DNA of 64,000 bases. Source: Rugosimonospora africana (GTDB taxonomy: Bacteria; Actinomycetota; Actinomycetes; Mycobacteriales; Micromonosporaceae). The stretch covers positions 434,001 to 498,000 of the forward strand of contig NZ_BONZ01000013.1 in assembly GCF_016862975.1 (NCBI RefSeq), in the 5' to 3' direction. Shown in pieces: positions 3,393 to 50,166 of this stretch (positions are counted from its first letter, which is position 1; each line of letters starts with the position of its first letter). The notes beneath the pieces are model-generated. The model did no database searches. It was not told where the DNA came from and saw only the letters and a program-made list of their open reading frames with translations. Both the position numbers and the translations under genes were made by a program.

Positions 3393-3458
3393 GGTACATG
3401 TCGGCGTTCACCGTAAGCCCCTTGCCCAATGAGGGCGAGCGGGGCACACAATCCGAGC

Positions 3459-4298
3459 ATGAGTGATCGTTTCGTTGTGATCGGGGCCGGCACCATGGGG
3501 ATCGGCATCGCCTACGTGGCCGCCGGCGCCGGGTACCGGGTCGAAGTCGTTGAGACGTCGCCGACCTGCGTGGACGCCGCCCGGGAACGGCTGCGCGTGC
3601 TGTGGGCCGGGGCGGTGGCCCGGGGCCGGATGTCCGAGGCGGACGCTTCGGAGGCCGGTACCCGAATCGCGTGGTTCAACGCGTTGGCCGAGGTGGACGA
3701 CGGACCGGACGTGATCGTGGAGGCCGTACCCGAGCGTCTCGACCTGAAGCGGGCGGTCCTCGCCGAGGCCGCCGGGAAGCACCCGGCCCTGCTCGGCTCG
3801 AACACCTCCAGCATCCCGATCGGCTCGCTCGGCGAGCGGGTGATCGGCCTGCACTTCTTCAACCCGGTGTGGGTCATGCCACTGCTGGAGATCGTCGTGG
3901 CGGACGGCACCGGGCCGGATCTCGTGGACGCCGCTCGGGCGCTGGCCACCCGGCTCGGGAAGGACCCGATCGTGGTGCGGGACATGCCCGGCTTCGCGAC
4001 CTCGCGGCTGGGTATCGCCCTCGGGCTGGAGGCGATCCGGATGGTCGAGGACGGCGTTGCCAGCGCGGCCGACATCGACAAGGCGATGATGCTCGGGTAC
4101 CGACACCCGATGGGGCCGCTGGAGCTGACCGACCTGGTCGGCCTCGACGTACGGCTGGACATCGCGCGGACGCTCCGCGACGCGTACGGTCCACGGTTCG
4201 AGCCGCCCGCCCTGCTTGAATCGCTGGTGGAGCAGGGGCGACTCGGTCGCAAGACCGGGCACGGCTTCTACGAGTGGAGAGACGGGGTACGCCAGTGA
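3459..4298 (+). CDS. 3-hydroxyacyl-CoA dehydrogenase (3-hydroxybutyryl-CoA type)
   Basis: 279 residues; NAD-dependent oxidation of L-3-hydroxyacyl-CoA in fatty-acid or butanoate metabolism. The Rossmann glycine motif GAGTMG is at residues 9-14, SNTSSIPI near 114-121, and HFFNPVWVMPLLEIV near 132-146 supplies the catalytic His and Glu. The position that is usually Asn in GFxxNR is Ser here (GFATSR), a variation to note. The C-terminal dimerisation domain includes GYRHPMGPLELTDLVGLD and ends with the typical HGFYEW. The ATG at 3459 is preferred because the family begins directly with the Rossmann strand. The stop overlaps the start of the enoyl-CoA hydratase, indicating an operon. Confidence 0.88.
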   Translation: MSDRFVVIGAGTMGIGIAYVAAGAGYRVEVVETSPTCVDAARERLRVLWAGAVARGRMSEADASEAGTRIAWFNALAEVDDGPDVIVEAVPERLDLKRAVLAEAAGKHPALLGSNTSSIPIGSLGERVIGLHFFNPVWVMPLLEIVVADGTGPDLVDAARALATRLGKDPIVVRDMPGFATSRLGIALGLEAIRMVEDGVASAADIDKAMMLGYRHPMGPLELTDLVGLDVRLDIARTLRDAYGPRFEPPALLESLVEQGRLGRKTGHGFYEWRDGVRQ

Positions 4299-5035
4299 AC
4301 TCGCTGCGGATCGAGGAGCGCGACGACCGGGTGATCGTGACCCTGAACCGCCCGGAGAAGCGCAACGCGATCGACGCCGGCATGGTGGCGGCCCTGCACG
4401 AGCTGTGCGCGTCACTCGAGGAGCGGCCAAGGTTGCTGCTGCTCACCGGCGGTGCGGCGGGCGTGTTCGCGGGTGGCGCGGACATCGGGCAGCTGCGCGA
4501 CCGCGGCCGGATCGAGGCGCTGGCCGGGATCAACGTGGGCATCTTCGAGCGGCTGCGCCGGCTGCCCATGCCCTCGCTGGCGGCGGTCGACGGTCCGGCG
4601 CTGGGTGGCGGGGCGGAGCTGGCGTACGCCTGCGACCTGCGGATCTGCACGTCCCGGGCGTTCTTCGGGCAGCCGGAGGTGCGGCTGGGCATCATGGCGG
4701 GAGCGGGTGCCACGTACCGGCTGCCGGCGCTGGTCGGCGAGACGCTGGCCAAGGAGATGCTGTTCACCGGCCGACGGGTACCGGCTGCGGAGGCGCTCGC
4801 CATCCGGCTGGTCAACCGGGTCGTCGAGGAACCGGACGAGCTGCTGCCGGCGGCTCACGCGCTGTTGGACGAGATCGCGGCCGGCTCCGCCCTCGCGGTA
4901 CGGCTGACGAAGCTCGCGGTCGACGCGCCGGCCGCCCACCCGGTCGCCGAGTTGCTGGGTCAGGCCGTGCTGTTCGAGGACGACGAGAAGCGCGAGCGGA
5001 TGGAGGAATTCCTGTCCCGCCGCCGGCCGTCCTGA
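4295..5035 (+). CDS. enoyl-CoA hydratase/isomerase family protein
   Basis: 246 residues of the crotonase fold, which hydrates trans-2-enoyl-CoA or performs a related acyl-CoA reaction. NRPEKRNAID lies near the N terminus, GGADIGQL gives the first oxyanion-hole strand and DGPALGGGAELAYACDL the second. Both glutamates expected for a hydratase are present (GGGAEL and GQPEVRLG). The GTG start overlaps the TGA of the upstream dehydrogenase (GTGA), so the two are coupled and probably act in sequence in beta-oxidation or a ketone/aromatic degradation branch. Substrate chain length is not deducible. Confidence 0.88.
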   Translation: MNSLRIEERDDRVIVTLNRPEKRNAIDAGMVAALHELCASLEERPRLLLLTGGAAGVFAGGADIGQLRDRGRIEALAGINVGIFERLRRLPMPSLAAVDGPALGGGAELAYACDLRICTSRAFFGQPEVRLGIMAGAGATYRLPALVGETLAKEMLFTGRRVPAAEALAIRLVNRVVEEPDELLPAAHALLDEIAAGSALAVRLTKLAVDAPAAHPVAELLGQAVLFEDDEKRERMEEFLSRRRPS

Positions 5036-5040
5036 ACCAC

Positions 5041-5073
5041 GAAGGCCGCCCGGCGTGTCGGCGGGCGGCCTTC
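5041..5073. terminator. 11-bp hairpin terminator
   Basis: GAAGGCCGCCC pairs perfectly with GGGCGGCCTTC around an 11-base loop, six bases after the enoyl-CoA hydratase stop and just before the convergent binding-protein gene ends. It probably terminates both transcripts. Confidence 0.8.
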
Positions 5074-5100
5074 GAGATCGGTCCTGTGCGCGACCGCTGT

Positions 5101-6426
5101 CTACGACTGGGCGAACTTGATCCCATCGGCCTGCAGCGCCGAGATCACACTCGCCGACTCCTCGTAGCCGGCCACCATGACCGCGTCCGGCTTGAAGTCC
5201 TTCACCGCCTTGGTGATCGCACCGAAGTCCTTCTGGTCGTCGGAGTAGGTCTTGCTGGTCAGGTCGTCCTGCTTGATGCCGGCCGCCATGAGATCCTTGC
5301 TGACCCCGTCGCGCAGGCCGGCGCCGTACGCGTCGTCCCGGGCCACGATGAACACCCGGCGCGCGCCGCCGCGCATGATGACGTCGGCCAGCGCCTGCGA
5401 CTGGTACGAGTCGGGCGGGCAGGACCGGAAGAACAGGCCGTGGTCGTCGATCGTGGACAGGCCGTCCGACGTGGCGGACGGGGAGAACAGGATCCGGCCG
5501 GCGGCCACCGCCTTCGGTACCAGCGCGGTCGCCTCGCCCGAGGACGGCGGCCCGATCATGATCGGGACGTTCTGGCTGACGAACGCGTTGAACTGCGCGG
5601 TCGCCTTGTTGACGTCGGTACCGTCGTCGCCGTCGATCGCGACGACCGGCTTGCCCAGGATGCCTCCGGCGGCGTTGAGCTCCCTGACCGCGAGGTGCGC
5701 GCCGGCGAACATCTGCGGACCCAGGTACGCCACGGCACCGGTCTTCGGCAGGAGCAGCCCGAGGGTCAGCTGGGTGCTCTTGGCGCCGTGCGCGCCGGAC
5801 GACGGCGCCGTCTGCTTGCTGGCGTCCTCGGTGTTGCCAGCCGACACGAATTCGGTCTTGGCGTCGTCGATCTTGTTGTTCTGGCCGAAGTGCAGCGTGC
5901 CGTACGAGGCGGTCGCCGGCTCACCGGCAGGGGTCAGGCCATTGCGCACGGCAACGCCGCGGTACGCGATGTCCTTGCCCTCCGCGATCGCATCCAGGCA
6001 GTCCTTGACCTGGGTGCACTCGACTCCGCCGGGCTGCAGGTTGGTCACCCCGTCGACATACTTGGCGACGGTCGTCGGATTCGTGGTGCCCGCGACGGCC
6101 ACGGCCAGCGCGCTGATCACCACGGCGTCGTATGACTCGCCGGCGTAGTTGTCGTCCGCGAGATTCGGGTCGACCTGGTCCAGCCGCTGCTTGAAGTCGT
6201 CCGTGAGCGCGGTCAGCGGCGTGGTGCCGACCATCCCGGTGATCGCACCGGGCTTCTTGAAGTCGGCGCCGAACGAGTTGCTCATGTTACCGTCCGTGCC
6301 GTACAGCCGGATGCCCGTATCGATCGATCCGGTGCCGGCCGGTCTGGTCGGATTCGAGGCGCAGCCGCCAGCGGCAACCAGCAGGGTCGCTGTGATCGCC
6401 ACGAGGGCTCTGCGTGTTGGGCGCAT
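5101..6426 (-). CDS. ABC transporter substrate-binding lipoprotein (LivK type), circularly permuted
   Basis: 441 residues. An export signal ends in LLVAAGGC with the lipidation Cys at 22, so this is a surface-anchored solute-binding protein. Standard LivK-like proteins read: start strand, NAAGG, FSPSATS, AYGxGL, then LYGTDGN, SYDA, CxxxxDC, ASYG. Here the order is swapped. Residues 38-195 hold the normal C-terminal half (LYGTDGNMSN at 41-50, ESYDAVVI at 97-104, CTQVKDCLDA at 137-146, ASYGTLHFG at 173-181). A Ser/Thr/Ala linker follows at ~196-217. Residues 219-441 hold the normal N-terminal half (LTLGLLLPKTG to LQADGIKFAQS). Nothing appears missing, so binding may be retained. No permease or ATPase is adjacent. 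Confidence 0.85.
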   Translation of the reverse strand: MRPTRRALVAITATLLVAAGGCASNPTRPAGTGSIDTGIRLYGTDGNMSNSFGADFKKPGAITGMVGTTPLTALTDDFKQRLDQVDPNLADDNYAGESYDAVVISALAVAVAGTTNPTTVAKYVDGVTNLQPGGVECTQVKDCLDAIAEGKDIAYRGVAVRNGLTPAGEPATASYGTLHFGQNNKIDDAKTEFVSAGNTEDASKQTAPSSGAHGAKSTQLTLGLLLPKTGAVAYLGPQMFAGAHLAVRELNAAGGILGKPVVAIDGDDGTDVNKATAQFNAFVSQNVPIMIGPPSSGEATALVPKAVAAGRILFSPSATSDGLSTIDDHGLFFRSCPPDSYQSQALADVIMRGGARRVFIVARDDAYGAGLRDGVSKDLMAAGIKQDDLTSKTYSDDQKDFGAITKAVKDFKPDAVMVAGYEESASVISALQADGIKFAQS

Positions 6427-6517
6427 GGCGCCGTCTCCCTCCCAATGGTCCCGGGCAGCACCCTAGCGCGCCGGTGACTTCGATCGCTTCCGGGTCTCTC
6501 GCCGAGGAGTACCGTCC

Positions 6518-6943
6518 GTGTTCATGGACGCGCTGGAGAAGATCCACCAGGACCAGGAAGCGACTGTTGGCGCCCTGCTCCCGGAACGGCTGGGCATCAC
6601 GATCAGTGAGGCTTCGCCGCAGCGCGTGGTCGGCTCCATGCCGGTCGAGGGCAACACCCAGCCGTACGGGCTGCTGCACGGCGGGGCGTCCTGCGTACTG
6701 GCCGAGACGCTCGGGTCGGTCGGCGCCGCCCTGCACGCGGCGGCCACCCACGGCGGCATCGCGGTGGGCATCGACATCAATGCCACCCACCACCGGTCGG
6801 CGCGCAGCGGCCGGGTGACCGGAGTGGCCACTCCGCTCTCCCTGGGCGGCACGCTGGCAAGCTACGAGGTCGTCATCTCCGATGAGCAGGGCGAGCGCAT
6901 CTGCACCGCCCGGATCAGCTGCCTTTTGCGCCGCCCGGCTTGA
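6518..6943 (+). CDS. hotdog-fold thioesterase, YdiI/MenI or PaaI-like
   Basis: 141 residues. YGLLHGGASCVLAETLGS carries the hotdog helix with the catalytic-type Glu, and GIDINATHHRSARSGRV follows, both closely resembling Escherichia coli YdiI/EntH sequences. These enzymes hydrolyse acyl-CoA or aroyl-CoA thioesters; YdiI acts on dihydroxynaphthoyl-CoA in menaquinone synthesis. The organism appears to use the futalosine-type trio at 57-60 kb, so a general or phenylacetate-type acyl-CoA role is as likely. The GTG at 6518 is preferred to the ATG at 6524 because GAGGAGT sits 7 bases before it. Confidence 0.82.
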   Translation: MFMDALEKIHQDQEATVGALLPERLGITISEASPQRVVGSMPVEGNTQPYGLLHGGASCVLAETLGSVGAALHAAATHGGIAVGIDINATHHRSARSGRVTGVATPLSLGGTLASYEVVISDEQGERICTARISCLLRRPA

Positions 6944-6966
6944 CCCAGCGATTTAGGCTGACTCCT

Positions 6967-7356
6967 GTGAATTCGCTGGAGAGTGACCCGTACCGCGACG
7001 CCGAACTGGTTCTCCGCTCGGCCCTCGGCGAAGATCGGGAGGCCCTCGCCGGCACCTTCAACGACGTGGTGGACCGAGCCGGGGTCTCCGGCGCATATGA
7101 CGTGGCCGTCTGCCTGGCCGCCACCATGGTCGGCGAGGGCACCCGGCCGGGTGGCTGGACCCTGGACTTCCCGGACATCGACGAGGTCGCGTACGACGCC
7201 CGCTGGGTCGCCCGGTTCGTCAGCGCGTACGTCAACTCCGACCCGTCCATGGGCCGGGCGCTGTTCGGCGCGGCGCTGGCCGACGGTCAGCTGCCGGAGT
7301 GCCTGGCCACCCTGGCCGGCTCCACGGTCGCCACGCTGCGCCGCCGGGCGACCTGA
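6967..7356 (+). CDS. conserved protein of unknown function
   Basis: 129 residues from a GTG; a TTG 27 bases upstream would overlap the thioesterase stop. The sequence is acidic and predicted helical, with no signal peptide or membrane helix. VNSLESDPYRDAELVL begins a helix and WTLDFPDIDEVAYDARWVAR forms a central Trp/Asp-rich segment. I do not recognise a family. Codon use matches the neighbours, and close spacing after the thioesterase suggests co-transcription. It converges with the acetyltransferase gene 18 bases further on. Confidence 0.6.
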   Translation: MNSLESDPYRDAELVLRSALGEDREALAGTFNDVVDRAGVSGAYDVAVCLAATMVGEGTRPGGWTLDFPDIDEVAYDARWVARFVSAYVNSDPSMGRALFGAALADGQLPECLATLAGSTVATLRRRAT

Positions 7357-45859: not shown

Positions 45860-46044
45860 GCATAGCAGTGTCCACCGAAAGGTGGATTGAGGCCAACTGC
45901 GTGTCGGGGTGGTCTGCCGCCGCGCCGGCCATTCGCTCCCGCCGCAGCTCAGTTCCGGCTGTGCTCGCCGTAGGTGGGTCGCAATTCGGACCTGAGCGGG
46001 CCATGATGGGTGCGGTCACGCCGCCCGCGACTGTGAGGAGTGAC

Positions 46045-49000
46045 ATGACTACGGTGGACAAGGAGCTGGTGGGCCTGCAGGGCGAGGCCCCCGTGCTGGC
46101 CGCGCTCGCCGATGCGCTGCGCCGGGTCCGCGACGGAGACTTCAAGGTCCGGATGTCCCGCCGGACCGGCGCCGCAGGCGAAGTCGTCGACCGGTTCAAC
46201 GAGGTCATGGCGTTGCTGGAGCGGCGAAATCGGGAGCTTCTTCGCATCGGCCGGGTAGTCGGACGAGACGGCCGGATGACCGAACGTGTCGACGAGGAGC
46301 ACTTCGACGGCGCCTGGGCCGACGGCGTACGCGCGGTGAACAGTCTGATCGACGACCTGGGGCGGCCCACCACCGAGATCGCCCGGGTGATCGTGGCGGT
46401 GGCCGAGGGCGACCTGTCCCAACACATGGCCAACGAGATCGACGGCCGGCCGCTGCGCGGCGAGTTCCTGCGCATCGGGCGGGCCGTGAACACGATGGTC
46501 GATCAGCTGTCGTCGTTCGCCGACGAGGTGACCCGGGTGGCCCGCGAGGTGGGCACCGAGGGGAAGCTGGGCGGCCAGGCCGACGTCCGGGGCGTCTCCG
46601 GCACCTGGCGCGACCTGACCGACAACGTGAACGTCATGGCCGCCAACCTGACCGGTCAGGTGCGCTCGATCGCGCAGGTCACGACCGCCATCGCGCACGG
46701 CGACCTGTCCCAGAAGATCACCGTTTCGGCCAAGGGCGAGGTCGCCGAGCTGGCCGACACGATCAACTCACTCACTGACACCCTCCGGCTGTTCGCCGAG
46801 GAGGTGACCCGGGTGGCCCGCGAGGTGGGCACCGAGGGGAAGCTGGGCGGCCAGGCGGAGGTGCCGGGGGTCGCGGGCACCTGGAAGGACCTCACCGACA
46901 ACGTCAACTCGATGGCGTCGAACCTGACCAGCCAGGTGCGGAACATCTCTCAGGTCTCCACCGCGGTGGCCCGGGGCGACCTCAGCCAGAAGATCACGGT
47001 GGCTGCCCAGGGCGAGATCCTGGAACTCAAGGACATCGTGAACACGATGGTCGACCAGCTGTCGTCGTTTGCCGATGAGGTGACCCGGGTGGCCCGTGAG
47101 GTGGGTACCGAGGGGAAGCTGGGCGGGCAGGCGCAGGTACGCGGCGTGTCGGGCACCTGGCGGGACCTCACCGAGAGCGTGAACCAGCTGGCCTCGAACC
47201 TGACCAGCCAGGTGCGGAACATCGCGCAGGTGACCACGGCGGTGGCCCGGGGCGACCTGAGTCAGAAGATCACGGTCGACGCCCGGGGCGAGATCCTGGA
47301 GTTGAAGTCGACGGTGAACACGATGGTGGATCAGCTGTCGTCGTTCGCCGACGAGGTGACCCGGGTGGCCCGTGAGGTGGGTACCGAGGGGAAGCTGGGC
47401 GGGCAGGCGCAGGTACGCGGCGTGGCCGGCACCTGGCGGGACCTCACGGACAACGTGAACCAGCTGGCCGCCAACCTCACCGGCCAGGTGCGGAACATCG
47501 CGCAGGTGACCACTGCGGTGGCCCGGGGCGACCTGAGCCAGAAGATCACGGTCGACGCTCAGGGCGAGATCCTGCAGTTGAAGTCGACGGTGAACACGAT
47601 GGTCGGCCAGCTGTCGTCGTTCGCCGACGAGGTGACCCGGGTGGCCCGTGAGGTGGGTACCGAGGGGAAGCTGGGCGGCCAGGCGCAGGTCAAGGGCGTC
47701 GAAGGCACGTGGCGGGACCTCACCGACAACGTCAACTCGATGGCGTCGAACCTGACCAGCCAGGTGCGGAACATCGCGCAGGTGACCACGGCGGTGGCCC
47801 GGGGCGACCTGAGCCAGAAGATCACCGTTGACGCTCAGGGCGAGATCCTGGAGTTGAAGTCGACCGTGAACACCATGGTGGATCAGCTCTCGTCGTTCGC
47901 CGACGAGCTGACCCGGGTCGGTCGCGAGGTGGGCATCGAGGGGAAGCTGGGCGGCCAGGCACAGGTCAAGGGCGTCGCCGGCACCTGGCGCGACCTCACC
48001 GAGAATGTCAACCAGCTGGCCTCCACGCTCACCAACCAGTTGCGCGCGATCTCTCAGGTGTCCACCGCGGTGACCCGGGGCGACCTGACCCAGCGGATCA
48101 CCGTCGAGGCCCAGGGCGAAGTCCTGGAGCTGAAGGACAACATCAACCAGATGATCGTGACGCTCCGCGAGACCACGAAGAAGAACGCGGAGCAGGGCTG
48201 GCTGGACTCCAACCTGGCGCGCATCGGCGGGCTGCTCCAGGGCCAGCGCGACCTGGTCGAGGTCGGCCGCATGATCATGAACGAGGTGACCCCGCTGGTC
48301 GAAGGCCAGCTCGGCGCCTTCTTCCTGGCCCGGCTGGACGACGGCGCGATCCGGCTCGCGCTGACCGCGTCCTACGGGTACGTCGCGCCGGACACCGAGG
48401 TCGTCTTCGCGCCCGGTGAGGGGCTGGTCGGGCAGGCGGCAGTGTCCCGCCGGCTGATCCGGGTCGACGCGCCGTCCGGGCGCCGGCTGACCATCCGTTC
48501 CGGGTTCACCGAGATCGCGCCGGTCGACCTGGTCGTCCTGCCGGTGCTGTTCGAGGGCGAACTGCTCGGCGTGATCGAGTTCGCGTCGGTACGCGCGTTC
48601 TCCGAACTGCACCTGTCCTTCCTGGAGCGGCTGGTCGCCGCGATCGGGGTGGCGCTCAACACCATTCAGGCCAACCGGCGCACCGAGGAACTACTGGCGC
48701 AGTCCCAGCGCCTGGCGCACGAGATGCAGGAACAGTCCGCGGAACTCCAGCGCACGAACGCCGAGCTGGAGGACAAGACCATGGTGCTGTCCGAGCAGAA
48801 CGTGAACATCGAGACCAAGAACCGGGAGATCGAGCTGGCCCGGCTGGGTCTGGAGGAGAAGGCGCAGCAGCTCGCGCAGGCGTCTCAGTACAAGTCCGAG
48901 TTCCTCGCGAACATGAGCCACGAGCTGCGCACCCCGCTCAACTCGCTGCTGCTGCTGGCCCGGTTGCTCGCCGACAACTCCGACCTCAACCTCACCGCCA

Positions 49001-50166
49001 AGCAGATCGAGTTCGCCCGGACCATCCACAGCGCCGGGTCCGACCTGCTCGCGCTGATCGACGACATCCTCGACCTGGCCAAGATCGAGGCGGGCCGGAT
49101 GGACGTCGAGCCGGCCGAGGTACGCCTCGCCGACGTGCGCGGGTACGTCGAGCAGGCGTACGCGCCGCAGGCCGAGGAGAAGGGCCTGCGGATGGAGGTG
49201 GAGCTGGCGCCGGACGTACCGCCGGTGATCGTCACCGATCCTCAGAAGCTCCAGCAGGTACTGCGCAACCTGCTGTCCAACGCGCTGAAGTTCACCGACT
49301 CCGGCTCGGTGACGATGCGGATCTCCAAGGCGGAGCCGGGTGCCAGCGTCGACGAGCCCGCGTTGCGGACCGCCCGCAACGTCATCGGGTTCACCGTGAC
49401 GGACACCGGCATCGGGATCCCGGACGACAAGCTGGCGCTCATCTTCGAGGCGTTCCAGCAGGCGGACGGCACGACCAGCCGCAAGTACGGCGGCACCGGC
49501 CTGGGCCTGTCCATCAGCCGCGACCTGGCCCGGCTGATCGGCGGCGGGATCGCAGTGTCCTCCACGCCGGGCGCGGGCTCCAGCTTCACCCTGTACCTGC
49601 CGGATGTCCTGCTGCCGGACACCGTGGTGAACATCGCCCCGCCGATCACCGCGAACCACCAGGCCCGGTCCGGTCCGGCGATCCTGCGCCCGGCGCCGGC
49701 CAGCTCTCCGGCCCGGATCGCGTCGCAGGCGGCGCACCAGCTCGACGGCGCCACCGTGCTGATCGTGGACGACGACGTACGCAACGTGTTCGCCCTGACC
49801 AGTGCCCTGGAGCTGCACGGCATGACGGTGCTGTACGCGGACAACGGCGCGGACGGCATCCGCCTGCTCACCGAGCATCCCCGGGTACACATCGTGCTGA
49901 TGGACGCGATGATGCCGGACCAGGACGGGTACGAGACCACCCGCGCAATCCGGCGCAACCGCAACTTCGCAGACCTGCCGGTCGTGTTTCTCACGGCGAA
50001 GGCGATGCCCGGCGACCGGGAGTCGGCGCTGTCGGCCGGTGCGAGCGACTACATCACCAAGCCTGTCGATCTCGACGAACTGCTTGAGCTGATGGCCTCA
50101 TGGGTATCAGGAAAGAACGCGTGGCCGGGTGGCACCGGCGGCGACAAGGAGGGCTGGGCGCCATGA
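46045..50166 (+). CDS. soluble hybrid histidine kinase with poly-HAMP array, GAF and receiver domains
   Basis: 1373 residues from an ATG with GAGGAG upstream; no membrane helix. After a ~60-residue start come six 92-residue HAMP-type units, each with [11 protein letters not shown] ([11 protein letters not shown] in the sixth) and GDLSQKIT-like segments, encoded at an exact 276-base period. Then: a GAF domain (~735-880), a coiled coil ([16 protein letters not shown]), HisKA with [15 protein letters not shown] (phospho-His), HATPase with [19 protein letters not shown] and GGTGLGLS, and a receiver (~1240-1360) with [15 protein letters not shown] and TKPVD. It matches the group III osmosensing-type kinases (Nik1-like layout). 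Overlaps the next regulator gene. Confidence 0.93.
46490..48145 (+). repeat. 276-bp tandem repeats encoding the HAMP array
   Basis: The landmark GAGGGGAAGCTGGGCGG recurs at 46558, 46834, 47110, 47386, 47662 and 47938, an exact 276-base spacing. Identity between central units is very high at the DNA level, indicating recent duplication or ongoing conversion. Confidence 0.9.

What the first reader, a model, noticed from the sequence alone, without database searches (positions are those of the whole stretch)
5101..6426. Circularly permuted LivK-type solute-binding lipoprotein
The conserved landmarks of the binding-protein fold occur in rotated order: normal C-terminal half (residues ~38-195), a flexible linker, then the normal N-terminal half (219-441). 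The protein ends with ADGIKFAQS exactly where the next element (LYGTDGN) now found near the N terminus would follow. The signal peptide remains at the front and no landmark seems lost, as expected from tandem duplication followed by loss of outer halves. I know of no described permuted member of this class.
Basis: partly seen in the sequence, partly recalled or inferred. Interest (0 to 1): 0.75.

Follow-up and report, generated by a model that had tools for sequence, protein, structure and literature searches.

The report
Repeatedly permuted LivK-type binding lipoprotein
An actinobacterial nutrient-binding lipoprotein has had its two halves swapped end to end; the swap is old, conserved in hundreds of genomes, and appears to have happened at least twice (probably three times) at two nearby break sites, which makes this protein family a natural experiment on how proteins get re-wired.

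Summary
ORF 5101-6426(-) encodes a 441-aa lipoprotein. Residues 39-195 match the normal C-terminal half of a LivK/HAAT-type solute-binding protein, residues 219-441 the normal N-terminal half. Pfam Peripla_BP_6 matches positions 2-216 of 343 in the natural order and 2-311 after rotation. It is no assembly artefact: collinear permuted orthologues occur in roughly 240 of 355 genomes of the window's family (hand count) and throughout a second family. A second permuted type, broken about 20 residues further on, occurs in distant families. On rotated trees the window type is one clade, sister to unpermuted proteins; a single clade of all permuted proteins is rejected (p=7e-6), as is one clade of the second type (p=4e-6), implying about three independent permutations. 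In the second family the permuted gene sits at the livHMGF locus that holds the unpermuted gene elsewhere. Nonomuraea has three tandem unpermuted copies there, as permutation by duplication requires. The window's family has lost the dedicated transporter. One natural precedent exists in another subfamily, Treponema MglB-2 (PMC4990184). Lobe closure is unconfirmed: the structure model was poor.

The parts
5101..6426 (-). CDS of the permuted LivK-type solute-binding lipoprotein (441 aa)
   Evidence: permuted orthologues
6361..6426 (-). lipoprotein signal peptide and lipobox Cys22 (residues 1-22)
   Evidence: matches the G+LPP-style lipobox pattern; Cys22 at 6361-6363
6313..6360 (-). membrane tether, residues 23-38
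   Evidence: low-complexity stretch between lipobox and domain; sequence reading
5842..6312 (-). normal C-terminal half (residues 39-195), now first; begins IRLYGTDGN; carries Asp45 (ligand-site Asp/Glu position) and the subfamily's conserved Cys137/Cys143
5773..5841 (-). linker joining the old C-terminus to the old N-terminus (residues 196-218)
   Evidence: low complexity, variable among orthologues
5104..5772 (-). normal N-terminal half (residues 219-441), now last; carries Ser296, Thr319, Tyr367, Glu422; ends ADGIKFAQS at the break
   Evidence: Pfam PF13458 positions 2-216; conservation; positions
6518..6943 (+). divergent neighbour: hotdog thioesterase (PaaI/EntH-like), conserved beside this gene in many genera of the family
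6940..7356 (+). conserved neighbour of unknown function (cluster c5; no NCBIfam hit)

Best explanation
The gene encodes a naturally circularly permuted Type I (LivK/HAAT-type) solute-binding lipoprotein. Shown: the order of the two halves is reversed relative to close relatives; all conserved positions, including those aligned with the LivJ/LivK ligand site, are retained on both sides of the break; the gene is under purifying selection; and the permuted form is a clade that in one family occupies the livHMGF locus held by the unpermuted sister gene elsewhere. Inferred: the protein folds into the same two-lobed flytrap, with the old termini joined by a 20-30 residue linker; it binds an amino-acid-like or amide ligand; and it arose by tandem duplication in place, fusion, and loss of the outer halves while the signal peptide stayed in front. 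The consequence of the swap is that the lipid anchor hangs on the second lobe, next to the ligand-site Asp, instead of on the first lobe. In one family and in the second permuted type it most likely feeds the adjacent LivHMGF importer. In the window's family that importer is lost, so the protein most likely delivers ligand to another Liv permease or acts as a stand-alone binding or sensing lipoprotein. The same kind of change occurred independently at least once more, probably twice, at a second site about 20 residues away.
For: Pfam collinear only after rotation. Two blocks in reversed order against 29 normal relatives, 83 permuted. Wide conserved distribution. Window type one clade 98/97, sister to unpermuted f8/f15 proteins. 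One clade for all permuted proteins rejected, p=0.0225 and 7.4e-6; one clade for the second type rejected, p=3.5e-6. The f30 pair of the second type is sister to unpermuted L181 in the full tree (98/93) and in the N-half tree. Shared locus livHMGF + SBP + ANTAR regulator in f16 (permuted) and f8/f15 (normal). Three intact tandem normal copies at the liv locus in Nonomuraea gerenzanensis, and neighbouring pairs in other genomes. Ligand-site Ser, Thr, Tyr, Glu and Asp at or near 100% in all groups. dN/dS 0.08-0.39. No orthologue of the cognate LivM in the window's genome; best match 35%.
Against: The AlphaFold model was confident only for the old N-terminal half (mean pLDDT 57.9, pTM 0.41), because few sequences were allowed in the alignment; lobe closure is therefore not shown. 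No fused or half-trimmed intermediate and no pseudogene remnant was found beside permuted genes, so the duplication route is indirect. The identical breakpoint of the two second-type lineages is what one event would predict, against the tree. The C-half tree alone is too short to place the f30 pair firmly. The ligand is unknown.
Confidence: 0.88

Rival explanations
1. One single permutation with later drift of the termini: an ancestral permuted protein kept the YGxDGN segment at both ends, and different lineages trimmed one copy or the other, giving the two breakpoints; unpermuted relatives between them would be reversions or the result of tree error.
For: The two breakpoints lie only about 20 residues apart in the same region. 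Both types lie in one subfamily and mostly next to the same operon.
Against: AU tests reject one clade for P1+P2 (p 0.0225 and 7.4e-6) and for P2 alone (p 3.5e-6). No protein with the segment at both ends was found. Reversion would need a second permutation back to the exact original order.
Confidence: 0.12
2. In the window's family the orphan permuted protein is not a transport component but a sensor or receptor lipoprotein, its transporter having been lost, and the anchor on the second lobe suits signalling.
For: The cognate LivM is absent from the window's genome and from the 11 other sampled family genomes without a normal-type liv locus, yet the gene is kept across about 29 genera (hand count), mostly single copy, under purifying selection. 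GlnH of Corynebacterium, a binding protein acting with GlnX upstream of PknG, is a precedent in the phylum (PMC9769921 abstract).
Against: No conserved kinase or transmembrane receptor gene was recognised beside it. Other Liv permeases exist in the genome and could be shared. In f16 and in the second type it sits with an importer.
Confidence: 0.35
3. The permutation arose by fission and fusion (two half-genes joined in the other order) rather than by tandem duplication.
For: A recognised alternative route (PMC3320104); not excluded by sequence.
Against: No separate half-genes were recognised in the searches made (they were not designed to find them); tandem whole copies are seen at the locus.
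Confidence: 0.12
4. Assembly error or chimera in the window's genome.
For: None found.
Against: The same order occurs in hundreds of independent assemblies, including single-contig genomes.
Confidence: 0.005

Closest known systems
LivJ/LivK-type (HAAT family, Type I / cluster B) solute-binding proteins, e.g. LivJ 4gnr, LBP 1usg, LIVBP 1z15, Atu2422 3ip5
   Same: Same homologous halves, collinear after rotation; positions aligned with the LivJ/LivK ligand site conserved; relatives encoded beside livHMGF
   Different: Order of halves reversed; new N-terminus just before the strand that carries the ligand-site Asp (aligned before Ala220 of 3ipc); lipid anchor moved to the second lobe; subfamily-specific Cys pair
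TpMglB-2 (Tp0684) of Treponema pallidum, 'Type Ic' permuted binding protein (PMC4990184)
   Same: A natural circular permutation of a Type I binding lipoprotein; its crystal structure and glucose binding show that such proteins still work
   Different: Sugar-binding MglB family; the first three N-lobe strands moved to the C-terminus, a different break; reported in treponemes and Gram-positives; no multiple origins described in the passages read
Unpermuted actinobacterial relatives beside livHMGF, e.g. three tandem copies in Nonomuraea gerenzanensis (L218)
   Same: Closest homologues (33-47% per half in most), same Cys pair, same locus in f8/f15
   Different: Normal order of halves

Membership tests
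LivK/HAAT Type I solute-binding proteins (Pfam Peripla_BP_6) | Profile match over the domain above the curated cut-off | tested here: met
   130 bits (cut-off 31.7) for the old N-half; collinear over profile 2-311 with 139 bits after rotation
LivK/HAAT Type I solute-binding proteins (Pfam Peripla_BP_6) | Canonical linear order of the halves | tested here: not met
   Order reversed
LivK/HAAT Type I solute-binding proteins (Pfam Peripla_BP_6) | Ligand-site residues (Ser, Thr in lobe 1; Tyr, Asp/Glu in lobe 2) | tested here: met
   At or near 100% conserved in permuted and normal groups; assignment to ligand contacts is from general knowledge of LivJ/LivK
LivK/HAAT Type I solute-binding proteins (Pfam Peripla_BP_6) | Genetic linkage to livHMGF (common, not strictly defining) | tested here: not met
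   Absent beside the window gene and no orthologous LivM in its genome; met in f16 and most second-type loci
LivK/HAAT Type I solute-binding proteins (Pfam Peripla_BP_6) | Two-lobed flytrap fold that closes on ligand | tested here: inconclusive
   Model confident only for one half
TpMglB-2-like 'Type Ic' binding proteins | Circularly permuted Type I domain in a lipoprotein | tested here: met
   lipobox
TpMglB-2-like 'Type Ic' binding proteins | Break after the third strand of the N-lobe, MglB homology | tested here: not met
   Break lies in the second lobe, residue 441/39; homology is to LivK-type proteins; TpMglB-2 description from PMC4990184
Bacterial lipoproteins | N-terminal signal peptide with lipobox Cys | tested here: met
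   AAGGC, Cys22; a lipobox-like motif upstream of the domain in 80 of 83 permuted relatives

The most novel reading that the evidence does not exclude
One LivK-type subfamily of the Actinomycetota has been circularly permuted three separate times, twice at the very same place and once about 20 residues upstream, each time by in-place tandem duplication next to its transporter; moving the lipid anchor from lobe 1 to lobe 2 is repeatedly favoured, and in one family it was followed by loss of the transporter and conversion to an orphan binding or sensing lipoprotein.
Probability: 0.5. Interest if true: 0.8.

Novelty: new variant of a known kind. Interest (0 to 1): 0.64.

Why it matters
Natural circular permutations are usually single curiosities whose route and benefit cannot be tested. 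Here permuted and unpermuted orthologues sit at the same locus in sister families, with two breakpoints, several apparent origins and tandem-copy genomes as possible precursors. That makes it possible to test whether permutation goes through tandem duplication, whether it is neutral or selected (for example by where the lipid anchor sits relative to the importer), and whether it precedes loss of the transporter. Practically, domain searches see only half of these proteins, so they are easily mis-annotated, and they are natural templates for permuted biosensors.

Tried and rejected
Assembly artefact: rejected. N-terminal half as an unrelated domain: rejected, since the C-half matches the C-half of normal relatives (mostly 30-47% identity) and the rotated profile match is collinear. 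A single origin for all permuted proteins: rejected by AU tests. Proteins with the YGxDGN segment at both ends: none among those extracted. Pseudogene remnants beside permuted genes: none by tblastn. Scans of viral contigs for more relatives gave one weak LivK locus or nothing. Rfam: no RNA element at 4500-7200. No promoter or terminator by the consensus scan, though a strong inverted repeat is visible at about 5042-5076. The outgroup was too distant to root the tree reliably, so later trees were used unrooted.

Full report
WHAT IS THERE. The ORF at 5101-6426 on the minus strand (441 aa) is intact, starts at an ATG preceded by GGGAGGGAG, and has a lipoprotein signal peptide with Cys22. Pfam Peripla_BP_6 matches only residues 220-437, which correspond to positions 2-216 of the 343-position profile. 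When the protein is rotated in silico so that residues 218-441 come before 39-195, the match becomes one collinear block, positions 2-311, E 2.9e-40, just like unpermuted relatives. Against PDB sequences the match extends from residues 217-430 to most of LivJ (4gnr) or LBP (1usg) after rotation. In the alignment to Atu2422 (3ipc) the break falls just before Ala220, and the Asp of YGTDGN aligns with Asp226.

IT IS CONSERVED, NOT AN ARTEFACT. Whole-genome searches found matches in 284 of 355 family genomes at E 1e-22 or better; subtracting genera whose hits are only at the level of unpermuted relatives leaves about 240 genomes and about 29 of 44 genera with a full-length collinear permuted orthologue (42-56% identity; hand count). 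A second family (f16) carries it in every matching genome listed (39-46%), and one f13 genome has it. dN/dS between close pairs is 0.08-0.39. Genomes in this collection are unnamed; that f1 is Micromonosporaceae and f16 Geodermatophilaceae is my inference from genome sizes and genus counts, not tested.

A SECOND PERMUTED TYPE. In distant families of the phylum (f43, f84, f126, f30) relatives are permuted too, but keep ...YGxDGNMGNALGxxFDAG at the C-terminus and begin about 20 residues later, at (E)L.GMKGT. Thus two breakpoints exist: P1 (window) just before the strand carrying the ligand-site Asp, and P2 after the next helix.

HOW MANY EVENTS. After rotating all sequences into normal order, P1 is a single clade (98/97), sister to unpermuted proteins of families f8/f15 (100/97). 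P2 falls in two places, one of them (f30) next to unpermuted L181 with support 98/93. Holding P1 and P2 together is rejected (p 0.0225; 7.4e-6), and so is holding P2 together (p 3.5e-6). The N-half alone again puts the f30 pair with L181 (98); the C-half alone is too short to decide firmly but leans the same way. The data therefore favour three independent permutations, two at the same site. The identical P2 site is the main reason for caution.

WHERE IT SITS. In f16 the permuted gene lies with livHMGF, a PaaI-type thioesterase, and a response regulator with an ANTAR domain, the same set of neighbours that surrounds the unpermuted sister gene in f8/f15. The permutation therefore seems to have happened at that locus. 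Second-type genes also mostly lie beside livHMGF. In the window's family the permuted gene instead stands divergently next to a thioesterase and a small conserved gene, without liv genes. A LivM close to the f16 one (53-58% identity) was found only in the three sampled family genomes that also hold an unpermuted binding protein in a liv locus; in the window's genome the best LivM is 35% identical and lies near another binding-protein gene. So the window gene is an orphan.

HOW IT COULD ARISE. Nonomuraea gerenzanensis carries three intact head-to-tail unpermuted copies between the ANTAR regulator and livFGMH, and other genomes show neighbouring pairs. This is the first step of permutation by duplication (PMC3320104). 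No fused or half-trimmed intermediate and no remnant was found, so this route remains inference.

HOW IT MOST LIKELY WORKS. The residues that correspond to the LivJ/LivK ligand site (Ser296, Thr319, Tyr367, Glu422, Asp45) are at or near 100% in P1, P2 and unpermuted groups (the assignment to ligand contacts is general knowledge of LivJ/LivK). The most likely picture is an ordinary two-lobed flytrap for an amino-acid-like ligand whose old ends are joined by a 20-30 residue linker and whose lipid anchor now hangs on lobe 2. This is inferred: the only model obtainable here was confident for one half only, and Foldseek matched LivJ-type structures through that half. That a permuted Type I protein can bind and change conformation is shown by Treponema TpMglB-2 (PMC4990184). 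For the orphan in the window's family, delivery to another Liv permease and a sensing role are both open; I put the transport reading slightly ahead.

COMPARISON AND NOVELTY. The only described natural precedent found is TpMglB-2, in another subfamily with another break. No paper found in the held library describes a permuted LivK-type protein; papers outside that library could. I rate this a new variant of a known kind, with above-average interest because of the recurrence, the shared locus and the available unpermuted sisters.

Noticed in passing
L133:1091-3082 (+), L152:532-1854 (+): LivH permeases of the cognate operon carry a long N-terminal extension with a secretion signal; in L133 it holds a CarboxypepD_reg Ig-like domain before the permease domain, unusual for LivH and a possible docking site for the binding protein.
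   Followed up: partly
L218:5417-10673 (+): Three head-to-tail copies of an unpermuted LivK-type binding protein beside livFGMH in Nonomuraea gerenzanensis; neighbouring pairs also in G1369, G1500, G1416 and G1346.
   Followed up: partly
window 5042-5076: Strong G+C-rich inverted repeat (GAAGGCCGCCCG...CGGGCGGCCTTC) between the convergent enoyl-CoA hydratase gene and the permuted gene, presumably a bidirectional terminator.
   Followed up: no
window 3429-5035 (+): 3-hydroxyacyl-CoA dehydrogenase and enoyl-CoA hydratase genes converge on the permuted gene; with the thioesterase at 6518-6943 they suggest an acyl-CoA metabolic neighbourhood, though the pair is not conserved in all genera.
   Followed up: partly
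window 45868-50166 (+): 1432-aa hybrid histidine kinase with a long tandem array of HAMP-like repeats ([19 protein letters not shown]...), resembling group III (Nik1-type) kinases; seen by eye in the ORF list.
   Followed up: no
window residues 137 and 143 (5998-6018): A Cys-x5-Cys pair is invariant in P1, P2 and unpermuted members of this subfamily and absent from most other LivK-type outgroup proteins, a candidate disulfide and family signature.
   Followed up: partly
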